A stretch of 64,000 nucleotides of DNA from Chitinophagaceae bacterium (GTDB lineage: Bacteria; Bacteroidota; Bacteroidia; Chitinophagales; Chitinophagaceae): the NCBI GenBank assembly GCA_019638595.1, contig JAHBTJ010000011.1, forward strand, positions 1 to 64,000, read 5' to 3'. Positions within the stretch are counted from its first letter, which is position 1. The number at the start of each line of letters is the position of its first letter. The translations under genes and the position numbers were made by a program. Shown here piece after piece: positions 2,607-62,050 of the stretch. Below the pieces are notes generated by a model. That model searched no databases, was not told the DNA's origin, and saw nothing but the letters and a program-made list of their open reading frames with translations.

Positions 2607-3851
2607 ATGGATAAAACACTTGAATTTTATATTGACCGTTATCTTTCCGGGACTATTTCAGCAACTGAATGGCGGGAGTTACAGGAATTGATGAAAGATC
2701 CGGCTACGCAACGGCAACTCAACCAGTTGATGGATCGTCAATTGGCCGAAAGGGCTGCTGCTAACCCTTCCTACCCGGAAGTAGTGAACCGGGTTAAGGC
2801 TGCTGTTGCAAATGAGATAAGTAGTACAGGTGATCCGGGAATGTTGGCTTCGATGACTAATGACAAAAAAAGACGTAGTTTTTTGAATAGCCACTGGTTC
2901 CGCTATGCCGCAGCTATCCTGGTTGTAATGATCTTATCTGTTACCTATTATTTATTGTTTGATAATGGAAAGCAAAATGCCATACAGCAAACAGCAATAG
3001 TACAACAAGAGGAAATTACAGATATAGCTCCCGGAGGTGAAAAGGCGCTGCTTACATTATCGGACGGAACTACCATTGTGTTAGACAGCGCTTCCAATGG
3101 AATGCTGGCAAGCCAGGGCAGTACACAGGTTGTTAAGCTTGCCAACGGCAGTATCGTATATCACGCCCAGGGAACAACAAAGTCGTCCGAAATTCTAACC
3201 AACACCATGAGTACTCCGAGGGGAGGTAAATATCACCTTATTTTGCCGGATGGAACAGGTGTATGGCTGAATGCAGCTTCTTCTATTACCTACCCAACGG
3301 TTTTCACCGGAGATACGCGGCAGGTAAGCATAAAGGGAGAAGTTTATTTTGAAGTAGTAAAAAACCCCCGGATCCCGTTTGTTGTAACACTTGATCATTC
3401 AAGACGGATAGAAGTAACCGGAACTTCATTCAATATAAACGCCTATCCCGACGAGCCACAATGTAAAACCACTTTGCTGGAAGGGGTAGTGAAGGTACAT
3501 GCCGGAGGAAGCGTTAAGCAATTAATACCAGGGCAGCAGGCGCAAACTGTAATGAGCGACATGCAGAGTGTTGTAACTGTTACGGATCATGTTAACCTTG
3601 AGCAGGTAATGGCATGGAAAAACGGTGCGTTCAGCTTTAAAAATGCCGGTATTTATGAGGTGATGCGGCAAGTGTCGAGATGGTATGACCTGGATATTGA
3701 ATATCGTGGCTTTACATCTAAAACCGCTGAGGGACCGCACTTTAGCGGTGATATAGGTATGGATCTGAACTTGTCTGCCATACTGCGTGTGCTTGAAAAA
3801 AGCCAGGTGCGCTTCAGGCTCGAAGAAAAAAAGTTAATTGTTATGCCTTAA
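2607..3851 (+). CDS. FecR-family anti-sigma regulator
   Basis: This is an inner-membrane anti-sigma factor of 414 residues. The cytoplasmic N-terminus (about 1-95) should bind the ECF factor. One membrane helix follows (WFRYAAAILVVMILSVTYYL, near 97-118). The periplasmic FecR domain has the STPRGGKYHLILPDGTGVWL motif and is followed by a C-terminal domain ending in a short secretin/TonB-like fold that can meet the SusC STN domain. A GTG 18 bp upstream is also in frame, but the ATG at 2607 gives the usual N-terminus. It lies between the sigma and SusC genes and presumably relays the occupied-receptor signal. Confidence 0.88.
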   Translation: MDKTLEFYIDRYLSGTISATEWRELQELMKDPATQRQLNQLMDRQLAERAAANPSYPEVVNRVKAAVANEISSTGDPGMLASMTNDKKRRSFLNSHWFRYAAAILVVMILSVTYYLLFDNGKQNAIQQTAIVQQEEITDIAPGGEKALLTLSDGTTIVLDSASNGMLASQGSTQVVKLANGSIVYHAQGTTKSSEILTNTMSTPRGGKYHLILPDGTGVWLNAASSITYPTVFTGDTRQVSIKGEVYFEVVKNPRIPFVVTLDHSRRIEVTGTSFNINAYPDEPQCKTTLLEGVVKVHAGGSVKQLIPGQQAQTVMSDMQSVVTVTDHVNLEQVMAWKNGAFSFKNAGIYEVMRQVSRWYDLDIEYRGFTSKTAEGPHFSGDIGMDLNLSAILRVLEKSQVRFRLEEKKLIVMP

Positions 3852-16200: not shown

Positions 16201-16664
16201 GGTTTGAATTTAAATTAACGCCCGGCGCTAACAACGGTGTAGGTATACGCACTCCGTTAACAGGAGATGCCGCCTATGAAGGAATGGAAATACAGGTGCT
16301 GGACGACGATGCTGATATTTATAAGGAGCTGAAGCCTTACCAGTATCATGGGTCGGTGTATGGAATTATTGCAGCTAAAAGAGGACACCTGAAGCCGGTT
16401 GGTGAATGGAATGAAGAAGAGATCCGTATCGAAGGAACCAGGATCAAAGTTACCCTGAACGGTACTGTTATTGTGGATGGCGATATAGCGGAGGCATCTA
16501 AAGATGGTACTGCCGATCACCGCGACCATCCGGGATTAAAGAGAACCAGCGGGCATATAGGATTCTTAGGGCATGGCGATACTTTGTTCTTCAGGAACAT
16601 TCGTGTAAAAGATCTGGCAAAGCCTGCAGCCGCACCTGTTAAAGGCAAAGCGAAGAAAAAGTAA
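13236..16664 (+). CDS. HEAT-repeat protein with two DUF1080 domains
   Basis: This is a very large exported protein of 1142 residues. The start at ATG 13236 gives a clean signal peptide (MRQILLIVFLMNSLLFTATA); an upstream in-frame start overlapping the previous gene is rejected. Residues of about 25-715 are helical HEAT-like repeats rich in Ala and Lys. Two DUF1080 (3-keto-disaccharide hydrolase) domains follow, near 723-930 (GFTSIFNGNDLTGW) and near 930-1125 (YRILFDGTSLHEW). The tail is basic and low in complexity (KGKAKKK). DUF1080 proteins cleave 3-keto-glycosides made by Gfo/Idh/MocA enzymes, which fits the gene immediately before it. The HEAT array may hold the hydrolase in a larger complex. 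Confidence 0.88.
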   Translation: MRQILLIVFLMNSLLFTATAQTDDNRTVTTKIADLLAKSPADDAKQLEANAAAVAGLGEAGITELVKKLDAGGDVSRLHFAISGFSFAATQPGKESWRSVAVKAYGAALPQLKDNEAKLFILAQLEQVGKDDAIPYLEGYLKDERFADPAARALATINSDASNKTLLAALANATGNARLSIVQALGDTRYREAAQPVATLAASDDAKTAKVALYTLARIGDPASQKILADAAAKSGYTYSVTDAASSYLLYLSNLATGGNTKVAEKAATALLKKATAGNQVHTRSAALKLLTDIQGGSGTALLTGAMKDKNAEYREAALKYAQPYINETTTPAWLKALSKAGAPAQSEIIRMLGNKGVAAALPVVLKSIQSKDAGVRLSAITAAAQIGGQEALPALLGILKTGSTGEIAAARSAILSMEGNDVVNELGDALNDASPAGKAAIIDVLGARAVSSKAADILPLAANTDPQISNSAKIALKQMVTPANLKQVYPLLLSAGNAQDISDWQQIIVAGVSRIPSARGRNAAILAEISKAPADKKSLFYNVLSGIGDKEGLATVAGAFASGSDPAKKDVISALSNWKGGLATTQLYQVLQQAGKGALAADAFTGFVKQISISKNTDELKLIMLRNAMEYAQTDGQKKAVLNQVGKCKTFLAFLYAGSFLDNPSLKREAANAAMNIAMADKSIYGTNVRQVLEKSISSLGGAESEYQKEALRKHLAEMPKGEGFTSIFNGNDLTGWKGLVADPVKRAKMDAKTLTKEQAKADEEMRNGWSVRDGLLVFNGHGNNLCTEKKYADFEMYVDWKITKDGDAGIYLRGTPQVQIWDTSRVDVGAQVGSGGLYNNQKNESKPLVLADNAIGDWNTFRIQMVGDLVTVYLNGVLVVNGVPLENYWDRNLPIFPEEQIELQAHGTYVAYRDIYIREIPRPKPYELTDDEKKEGYRILFDGTSLHEWVGNKTAYVIEDGNIAVYPKRGGNGNLYTKDEYSDFAFRFEFKLTPGANNGVGIRTPLTGDAAYEGMEIQVLDDDADIYKELKPYQYHGSVYGIIAAKRGHLKPVGEWNEEEIRIEGTRIKVTLNGTVIVDGDIAEASKDGTADHRDHPGLKRTSGHIGFLGHGDTLFFRNIRVKDLAKPAAAPVKGKAKKK

Positions 16665-16669
16665 ATGAA

Positions 16670-16746
16670 GTTACAGGTTTCAGGTTACAAGGAAGAAGTT
16701 CGTTGCGTCCTGGAACCTGTTACAGGTTGCATGTTTCAGGTATGAT
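16670..16746. repeat. Heptad array A (GTTACAG type), two blocks
   Basis: Units of 7 bp resembling GTTACAG or GTTTCAG occur at 16670-16690 and again at 16719-16746. Between them, at 16709-16723, similar units run in the opposite orientation and match the first block at 13 of 15 positions when reverse-complemented. The array begins 5 bp after the DUF1080 stop codon and may fold into a hairpin in the 3' untranslated region. Confidence 0.7.
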
Positions 16747-16764
16747 GGATGTTGAAGGTTTGTT

Positions 16765-16980
16765 GTTTATAGTTTGTAGTTTATGGTTTTCTCCAACTAT
16801 AAGTGTTCTATGCGTTATTTTGAAGGCTGCCATATCAACAATTTTATAGCGTCATGGACGCGAAAGTTTGGTGGCAGTTATGAAGTAACGTATTGACAAA
16901 GCTCCGTAGGAGCGGCATTTTCGCAGGTTTCAAACGTTTATGGTTCCCAGCTATAAACAAAAAACCATAAACTATAAATT
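16765..16980. repeat. Heptad array B (GTTTATA type) with distant inverted arm
   Basis: The left arm at 16765-16790 consists of 7-bp units (GTTTATA, GTTTGTA, GTTTATG). The right arm at 16962-16980 reads as the reverse complement of the left arm but lacks exactly one heptad. The two arms enclose about 170 bp with no recognisable gene. The exact one-unit difference shows that the heptad is the unit of gain and loss. Confidence 0.75.
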
Positions 16981-16990
16981 GCTGCTTACA

Positions 16991-17053
16991 CTCACAGCCC
17001 GCAGCTCATAGCTCATAGCCGATAGCCCATAGCTGACAGCCCACACCCCATAT
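16991..17053. repeat. Heptad array C, nine units
   Basis: Nine uninterrupted 7-bp units share the consensus C-(T/C)-(C/G)-A-(T/C)-A-G; examples are CTCATAG and CCGATAG. The array ends 70 bp before the next gene. The same heptamer family recurs at 36254-36281 and 61913-62045. The stretch 16665-17123 holds only arrays A, B and C and no supported gene. Confidence 0.85.
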
Positions 17054-17123
17054 CATATTCATAAAAATCGCATGTGTTTTTTACAAAAGATCATTGTAAT
17101 TTCAGGTTTACTAAATATTGAGT

Positions 17124-59659: not shown

Positions 59660-59666
59660 TGAGTTG

Positions 59667-59743
59667 ATTTGAGATTTGAAATTTGAGATTTATTCCTGAT
59701 TTGATATTGATTGCAAAATATCAAATATCAAATTTCAAATATT
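59667..59743. repeat. Heptad array E (ATTTGAA type), inverted arms
   Basis: The left arm (59667-59691) holds three 7-bp units of ATTTGAG/ATTTGAA plus a partial one. The right arm (59716-59743) holds units of TCAAATA/TCAAATT, the complement. The array fills the gap from 8 bp after the SDR start codon side to the base before the dehydrogenase stop codon. Confidence 0.85.
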
Positions 59744-60769: not shown

Positions 60770-60775
60770 TTGATT

Positions 60776-60885
60776 TGAAATTTGGTATTTGAAATGGTGT
60801 ATTTGAAATTTGATATTTAAGATTTGATATGCTATAATTTGACCGCTTAATCAACCAAAGCATCTCAAATCTCAAATTTCAAATA
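60776..60885. repeat. Heptad array F (TGAAATT type), inverted arms
   Basis: Eight 7-bp units around TGAAATT occupy 60776-60831. The right arm at 60865-60885 consists of three complementary units (TCAAATC, TCAAATT, TCAAATA). It lies between the dehydrogenase start and the decarboxylase stop. The heptamer is the same as in array E on the other side of the dehydrogenase. Confidence 0.85.
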
Positions 60886-60886
60886 A

Positions 60887-61680: not shown

Positions 61681-61893
61681 TCAGGAATTGGCTATTGATT
61701 TTTCTGTTTTGAACATCCTGTAAGCCAGTATAGTACTTACCAGCATCAGCAATGCGCCCAGCAAAAACGGAGCTCCCGGAAAATATACCGGAGCATTTTT
61801 CTTTGTAAAGTAAGCAAAAAGATTTGTCATTAACAGCGGCCCTACTATTGTAGTTGCGCTCATCATACTGGTTAAAGCTCCCTTGTTTGGAAG
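61681..61893 (-). pseudogene. MFS (TetA-like) transporter, C-terminal remnant
   Basis: The frame reads LPNKGALTSMMSATTIVGPL and ends at GALLMLVSTILAYRMFKT, i.e. the last two helices of a tetracycline-resistance-type MFS transporter. Relatives have about 400 residues; here only about 70 remain, with no intact upstream part. The sequence upstream is array G. It is a decayed gene end and unlikely to be functional. Confidence 0.75.
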
Positions 61894-61912
61894 ATGCCAT
61901 TTAAATAATTTT

Positions 61913-62045
61913 GCTATCAGCTATCAGCCACGAGCTATCAGCCGTGGCAACCAGTTAAAATTTTTTAATTTTCTTTCTATTGTTATTAAAAGCGTACATG
62001 ACACCGAAAGCTGACTGCTGATAGCTGACAGCCGAAAGCCGACAG
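61913..62045. repeat. Heptad array G (GCTATCA/CTGATAG type), inverted arms
   Basis: The left block (61913-61947) has five units such as GCTATCA and GCCACGA. The right block (62004-62045) has six units such as CTGATAG and CCGAAAG, the reverse complement. The two blocks are 56 bp apart and the right one ends 5 bp before the Ogt stop codon. The heptamer family is that of arrays C and D. Confidence 0.85.
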
Positions 62046-62050
62046 CTCCC

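What the first reader, a model, noticed from the sequence alone, without database searches (positions are those of the whole stretch)
16670..17053. Three different heptamer arrays side by side in one intergenic gap
Between the DUF1080 gene and the next gene lie arrays A (GTTACAG type), B (GTTTATA type) and C (CTCATAG type). All have a strict 7-bp period. In array B the inverted arm lacks exactly one heptad, so units are gained and lost as wholes. This resembles the heptanucleotide STRR sequences described in cyanobacteria, which I do not know as established in Bacteroidota.
Basis: partly seen in the sequence, partly recalled or inferred. Interest (0 to 1): 0.72.

Follow-up and report, generated by a model that had tools for sequence, protein, structure and literature searches.

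The report
Gene-end hairpins built from seven-base repeats
The three reported arrays are parts of one dispersed, hairpin-like unit built from interchangeable seven-base repeats; this bacterium carries many such units just after its genes, here in the place where related species have an ordinary transcription terminator.

Summary
In detail: period 7 is the special period of this genome's spacers (30 arrays in 80 kb of unselected intergenic DNA against 0.25 in shuffles). The arrays are not independent. They are modules of one dispersed two-armed unit made of four heptad families (A-D). G-rich heptads lie left and C-rich heptads right in 58 of 65 gaps (shuffled labels: mean 17, maximum 27); A and C take opposite arms (30 against 9); copies share long stretches. 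In the window the unit is A<B< | B>C>, split by a 146-bp MITE-like repeat. Units start a median 8 nt after stop codons in tandem gaps and avoid short divergent spacers (1 of 80; convergent 21 of 81). Downstream of this gene 12 of 12 readable relatives have a strong intrinsic terminator; the window genome has the unit instead. Against: no U tract, no arm-specific pairing, terminator depletion significant only in this genome. The STRR comparison fits unit length only; heptamer arrays in Bacteroidota are in print (PMC4679880). Best reading: a BIME-like gene-end hairpin repeat; its function in ending transcripts is inferred, its copying route unknown.

The parts
16668..16691 (-). A-family heptads, first piece (G-rich orientation, A<)
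   Evidence: HMM call in gap coordinates 4-27, score 24; TRF period 7
16670..16723 (+). hairpin of the first A piece with the inverted sequence after it, starting 6 nt after the stop codon; no U tract
   Evidence: 81-nt stretch folds at -26.9 kcal/mol, z -3.7
16719..16741 (-). A-family heptads, second piece (A<)
   Evidence: HMM score 21
16751..16789 (-). B-family left arm (B<)
   Evidence: HMM score 32; TRF
16797..16942 (.). 146-bp MITE-like dispersed repeat inserted in the centre of the unit; ends read by eye
   Evidence: 14 copies of 90 nt or more counted in the sequence held, this one included, plus one 73-nt fragment
16951..16978 (+). B-family right arm (B>)
   Evidence: HMM score 24; inverted repeat with the left arm
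16991..17052 (+). C-family right arm (C>)
   Evidence: HMM score 54; TRF
   Evidence: ORF list
59666..59742 (.). second unit of the window, D< D>
   Evidence: fold z -3.5
60772..60884 (.). third unit, D< D< D>; its 117-nt spacer is identical in G004
   Evidence: fold z -5.6
61913..62048 (.). fourth unit, C< C>
   Evidence: fold z -4.4

Best explanation
The arrays are modules of one dispersed two-armed intergenic repeat (canonical order D-A-B | B-C, in either orientation) that this lineage carries at gene 3' ends. Each arm is a run of degenerate heptads; the left arm is of the G-rich kind and the right arm of the C-rich kind, so a transcript of either strand meets a G/U-rich arm and then an A/C-rich arm and can fold into a long imperfect hairpin just after the stop codon. 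Shown: copies share long stretches, so units spread as wholes by an unknown route; arms have fixed polarity and module order; single heptads differ between sister species in well-aligned spacers; units lie after stop codons, and at this gene the unit stands where relatives have a terminator. Inferred: that the unit serves as a bidirectional gene-end hairpin that ends or protects transcripts, and that heptads change by slippage or unequal exchange.
For: Polarity 58 of 65, 37 of 39 after removal of similar copies and 16 of 19 in unselected stretches, 14 of 15 in G004 and 8 of 10 in other genus members, and 21 to 2 without the family model. A and C on opposite arms 30 to 9. Long matches between spacers 68 against 3 simulated at 80 bits or more. 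First array a median 8 nt after the stop in tandem gaps and 7 nt in convergent gaps; short divergent spacers 1 of 80, convergent 21 of 81. Strong canonical terminators after 5 of 92 array gene ends and 77 of 376 others, p 0.00035. Downstream of this gene 12 of 12 readable relatives have a terminator and no arrays; the window genome has none. Folding: all four window spacers z -3.5 to -5.6; 58% of 66 units below -2.
Against: Arms of one unit do not pair better than arms of different units (-15.3 against -16.3; worse than 99.9% of family-matched permutations). T tracts are rarer after units (4 of 107) than in control 25-mers (93 of 822). Terminator depletion is not significant in G004 (1 of 22 against 15 of 86) and absent in other genus members (2 of 16 against 7 of 66). 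Arrays are pooled no better conserved than other spacer DNA (84.3% against 87.3% and 83.4%). Occupancy is kept only partly beyond the sister species. In pooled alignments multiples of 7 are not in excess among indels (7 of 46).
Confidence: 0.5

Rival explanations
1. The same dispersed repeat, but selfish or neutral: a BIME-like element that is merely tolerated after genes and destroys or displaces terminators without taking over their task.
For: Arms are not co-adapted, no U tract, no extra conservation, absence from promoters explained by purifying selection. The MITE in the centre shows that such loops are insertion targets.
Against: All 13 array spacers of the window genome that could be compared also have arrays in G004, often with changed content; strong folding of the four window spacers; loss of a terminator should often be costly.
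Confidence: 0.33
2. Plain simple-sequence arrays made at each place by slippage, as the first reader's STRR comparison implies.
For: Heptad period only; some single-heptad differences; long pure C arrays in distant families; the proposal by Mrazek and colleagues that 7 nt favours slippage (seen only as cited in PMC4679880, section 3).
Against: Polarity, opposite-arm rule, conserved non-heptad linker (58 copies) and long matches between copies in excess of independent heptads.
Confidence: 0.07
3. Binding sites for a translational or transcriptional regulator, as proposed for TAACTGA repeats in Beggiatoaceae, or a phase-variation switch.
For: Heptad length; the C family is one base from TAACTGA (PMC4679880).
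Against: Arrays follow stops (median 8 nt) rather than precede starts (43 nt in tandem gaps, 117 nt in divergent gaps); short divergent spacers are nearly free of them.
Confidence: 0.04
4. Scars of chromosome breaks healed by adding G-rich heptads to both 3' ends before rejoining, as in fused telomeres (analogy recalled).
For: G-rich left and C-rich right with independent arms and a short centre (median 6.5 nt) is the layout this would give.
Against: Units are copied as wholes with a fixed linker; no link with synteny breaks (5 of 18 array gaps against 10 of 28 array-free gaps); no enzyme was sought.
Confidence: 0.03

Closest known systems
TAACTGA direct repeats (MacGregor 2015, PMC4679880)
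   Same: Heptamer, intergenic, present in Bacteroidetes; other heptamer repeats noted in some of the same spacers; the C family is one base away.
   Different: In the main genome of that paper one favoured heptamer lies mostly just upstream of start codons and related heptamers are rarely repeated; here four degenerate families lie in two-armed units after stop codons.
BIME / REP-type interspersed palindromic repeats (features recalled)
   Same: Dispersed, extragenic, inverted arms, gene 3' ends, mosaic modules.
   Different: Built of heptads; no fixed core hairpin; strict G-arm/C-arm polarity; no RAYT partner was sought.
Cyanobacterial heptanucleotide STRR (recalled)
   Same: Seven-base tandem units in spacers.
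   Different: Degenerate units, four families in ordered inverted arms.
Intrinsic (Rho-independent) terminators
   Same: Hairpin just after the stop codon; in this genome the two rarely follow the same gene.
   Different: No U tract; long AU-rich imperfect stems; arm polarity that canonical terminators here lack (47 to 42).

Membership tests
Intrinsic terminator | U tract directly after the hairpin | tested here: not met
   T tract within 25 nt after 4 of 107 units against 93 of 822 control 25-mers
Intrinsic terminator | stable hairpin just downstream of the stop codon | tested here: met
   window unit: hairpin from 6 nt after the stop, z -3.7; units in general median z -2.3
Intrinsic terminator | ends transcripts | not testable with these tools
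   needs RNA 3'-end data
BIME/REP-like interspersed palindromic repeat | dispersed, extragenic copies that share sequence | tested here: met
BIME/REP-like interspersed palindromic repeat | gene 3' ends preferred over promoters | tested here: met
BIME/REP-like interspersed palindromic repeat | RAYT-type transposase partner | not tested
   no search was made
TAACTGA repeats | position just upstream of start codons | tested here: not met
TAACTGA repeats | one favoured heptamer, relatives rarely repeated | tested here: not met
   four degenerate families
Heptanucleotide simple-sequence repeat (STRR/LSSR) | 7-bp period beyond chance | tested here: met
Heptanucleotide simple-sequence repeat (STRR/LSSR) | length change by whole units | tested here: inconclusive
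   seen in near-identical spacers, no excess of multiples of 7 in pooled alignments (7 of 46)
MITE (the whole heptad unit as one) | fixed ends with terminal inverted repeats and target duplications | tested here: not met
   ends of shared stretches vary between the five pairs aligned; the 146-bp insert, in contrast, has fixed ends

The most novel reading that the evidence does not exclude
A modular gene-end signal: exchangeable heptad (in some lineages octad) modules with fixed G-arm/C-arm polarity that replace intrinsic terminators and act as bidirectional terminators or 3'-end protectors without a U tract, so that sequence families can be swapped at a locus while the function stays.
Probability: 0.2. 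Interest if true: 0.75.

Novelty: new variant of a known kind. Interest (0 to 1): 0.52.

Why it matters
Heptamer repeats in bacterial genomes have been put down to slippage or left without a use. Here they are organised: polarity, module order, dispersal as wholes, placement after stop codons, and a clear case of standing in for a terminator. That makes the question of what they do directly testable by RNA 3'-end mapping in cultured Chitinophagaceae. If the units end transcripts, gene-end annotation in many Bacteroidota needs them.

Tried and rejected
Arm-specific hairpin pairing, and fold-back copying of one arm into the other: rejected (A and C on opposite arms). Special conservation of arrays: not found in pooled data, although one spacer is identical over 117 nt. 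Link with synteny breaks: none, 5 of 18 against 10 of 28. Polarity as a by-product of canonical terminator shape: rejected, 47 to 42. Polarity as a start-codon constraint: unlikely, since it holds in 14 of 15 convergent gaps. Rfam: one match far below its gathering score (17 of 50 bits, E 0.17), taken as chance. Polarity outside the family: 4 to 2 in G158 and 1 to 0 in G199, not established. Terminator depletion was not significant in G004 and absent in other genus members. A stop codon in each heptad was considered on reading and dropped without a call.

Paper searches. Only PMC4679880 was opened (abstract, sections 3, 8, 12); of all others I saw the search listing. Within these eight searches I saw no description of a polarised composite heptad unit; the library lacks most subscription journals. 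STRR, BIME/REP and telomere features are recalled.

Limits of the sample: gene calls come from a small script of my own; 20 of the 60 own-genome stretches were chosen partly around B hits; the HMM was trained on the spacers it was then counted on, with one shuffle as control.

Full report
Setting. The window lies in a genome of 7,056,364 bases in 52 contigs. Matches to the C-terminal part of the upstream protein point to Chitinophagaceae: the best record is MAG ACE_BAC13 (93% identity), whose contig has the same length as the matching contig of sister genome G004, and the closest named isolate among the top rows is Agriterribacter humi (87%). The whole genome was not available as a file. I used the window and 60 stretches, 1.26 Mb in all; 20 stretches were chosen partly around B hits and 40 (L085-L124, 800 kb) were not.

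Is it real? TRF reports the arrays. Gap 16665-17123 has a best period-7 score of 19; 0 of 5000 shuffles reach it. In the 40 unselected stretches (401 spacers, 80 kb) there are 30 period-7 arrays in 19 spacers at score 11 or more, against a mean of 0.25 in 20 shuffles; of the other periods from 2 to 15, period 14 has 22 and the rest at most 3. Coding DNA (1,116 kb, all stretches) has 5 at period 7, no more than at periods 3, 6, 9, 12 and 15. Three B heptads with up to 2 mismatches: 177 places genome-wide against 26 for the reversed pattern. The C pattern: 208 against 0.

Four families, one unit. Nearly all strong arrays read by eye as four families, which an HMM sharpened to A [CTA]AACCTG, B AAAC[CTA]A[TC], C AGC[TC][GC]A[TC], D AAAT[CT]TC; 332 arrays at score 12 or more against 11 in one shuffle, trained and counted on the same spacers. 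Where families abut they switch in phase: A and B in 23 of 25 cases, B and C in 18 of 30. In 58 of 65 spacers with both orientations all G-rich arrays lie left of all C-rich ones; label shuffling gives 17.2 on average and 27 at most in 2000 trials. The rule holds after removal of similar copies (37 of 39), in unselected stretches (16 of 19), in each gene-orientation class, in G004 (14 of 15) and in other genus members (8 of 10), and without the family model (21 to 2). Some of the seven violations look like two units side by side (my reading). B is most often innermost. A and C sit on opposite arms (30 to 9; 10 to 2 in unselected stretches, 11 to 5 after removal of similar copies). D shares an arm with A 17 times and with C 6 times, joined to A by a linker that is not a heptad; linker plus edges occurs 58 times here, 32 in G004 and 0 to 2 times in the ten other genus members, with no control hits. 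Long matches between spacers exceed a simulation with independent heptads: 68 against 3 pairs at 80 bits or more, 15 against 0 at 100; one pair shares 177 bp at 89%. The arrays are therefore parts of a dispersed unit.

The window unit. After the stop codon at 16664 come A< A< B<, then a 146-bp repeat, then B> C>. The repeat has 14 copies of 90 nt or more in the sequence held, the window's included; seven stretches had been fetched because they hold it. Its terminal inverted repeats and, in other copies, target duplications of about 9 bp, often within a palindrome, were read by eye. One other copy (L051) also lies between B arms and shares 285 bp at 88% with the window, so unit and insert seem to have been copied together. 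The first A piece and the inverted sequence behind it fold into a hairpin that starts 6 nt after the stop (z -3.7). The whole stretch 16665-17060 folds at z -4.5; the B left arm alone (z 0.3) and the C arm alone (z -1.6) do not fold well. The three other window units fold at z -3.5, -5.6 and -4.4.

Place in the genome. In tandem gaps the first array starts a median 8 nt after the stop and the last ends 43 nt before the start; in convergent gaps the median distance to the stop is 7 nt, in divergent gaps the distance to the start is 117 nt. Among spacers under 300 bp, 21 of 81 convergent, 48 of 354 tandem and 1 of 80 divergent ones carry arrays; in the unselected set 10 of 52, 17 of 224 and 1 of 54. 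Strong canonical terminators (-12 kcal/mol or lower, with U tract) follow 5 of 92 array gene ends and 77 of 376 others (p 0.00035); at -10 it is 9 of 92 and 88 of 376, where shuffled array spacers give 2-10%. In G004 the trend is the same but not significant (1 of 22 against 15 of 86) and in other genus members it is absent (2 of 16 against 7 of 66). At the gene of this finding, 13 named relatives were examined (L183-L195). One is masked there. The other 12, nine close ones and three Flavihumibacter, all have a hairpin with U tract of -14.1 kcal/mol or lower ending within 63 nt of the stop and no arrays in the next 500 nt. The window genome's best in 180 nt is -5.3.

Between species. Of 31 syntenic spacers compared with G004, all 13 with arrays here have arrays there; of 18 without, 17 have none there. 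Five are nearly identical (92-100%); in these the array indels are 7 or 14 nt, apart from two of 1 nt beside the C arrays at 61867-62050. The others have changed contents, often in the centre. In the pooled alignments only 7 of 46 indels in arrays are multiples of 7, no more than chance, so unit-wise change rests on the few clean cases. Spacer 60770-60886 is identical over 117 nt while four-fold sites of its flanking genes are 60% and 57% identical; pooled, however, array identity is 84.3%, other DNA of the same gaps 87.3% and array-free gaps 83.4%. In G002, G003, G005, G006 and G008 the orthologues of five array spacers held arrays in 14 of 17 comparisons, often of another family, for example D<D> here and B<B<B> in G002. 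Three more spacers gave 2 of 2, 1 of 4 and 0 of 5 in these genomes. Together 17 of 28, against a base rate of 9% (35 of 401 unselected) to 15% (97 of 634).

Mechanism. Shown: dispersal as wholes, polarity, module order, gene-end placement, hairpin potential, and absence of canonical terminators where units lie in this genome. Inferred: that the units end or protect transcripts. Against a classical terminator stand the missing U tract and the lack of a pairing preference between arms of one unit; the latter means that arms are interchangeable, since right arms pair better than their shuffles (-15.3 against -11.6) but no better with their own left arm than with another. The cause of the polarity is open. 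A neutral, BIME-like reading is the main rival.

Distribution. The C pattern (up to 1 mismatch) is in 21 of 198 sampled genomes of the phylum, the own genome included; the reversed control matches in 7 genomes. In several distant genomes it forms long pure arrays like simple sequence repeats. Eight-base arrays dominate in one genome of another family and occur beside heptads in G020. Polarity is well supported in the genus, agrees in two other genera of the family (G020 2 to 0, G015 1 to 0), and is unproven beyond.

Known things. The nearest published case found is TAACTGA repeats (PMC4679880); placement and build differ. STRR and BIME features are recalled. I file this as a new variant of interspersed palindromic repeats, built from heptanucleotide arrays.

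Noticed in passing
window 16797-16942; copies in L005, L014, L045-L051, L088, L121, L122: 146-bp MITE-like repeat with inverted ends; several copies sit in the middle of a palindrome with a target duplication of about 9 bp (read by eye).
   Followed up: partly
L008 10593-10856 and 14739-14959: Two units, 89% alike over 177 bp and inverted, bracket a 3.9-kb block whose neighbours lie on other contigs in G004.
   Followed up: partly
window 60770-60886: Spacer identical over 117 nt in G004 although four-fold sites of the flanking genes are only 57-60% identical; folds at z -5.6.
   Followed up: partly
L080 (G031) and L064 (G020): Arrays with an 8-bp period, G-rich ones left of C-rich ones where they lie near each other.
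   Followed up: no
L264, L266, L267, L270 (G199, G074, G090): Long pure AGCTGAT-type tandem arrays in a distant family of the phylum.
   Followed up: no
L284 (G006:C104), 2761-3328: Five A-family arrays, most of them about 143 bp apart, perhaps a larger tandem repeat.
   Followed up: no
window 61883/61884 against G004:C22: G004 has about 1,007 bp more at the left edge of the C<C> unit.
   Followed up: no
L052 7506-12489 (G004:C42): G004 has about 5 kb between this gene and the orthologue of the next small ORF, where the window genome has only the heptad unit.
   Followed up: partly
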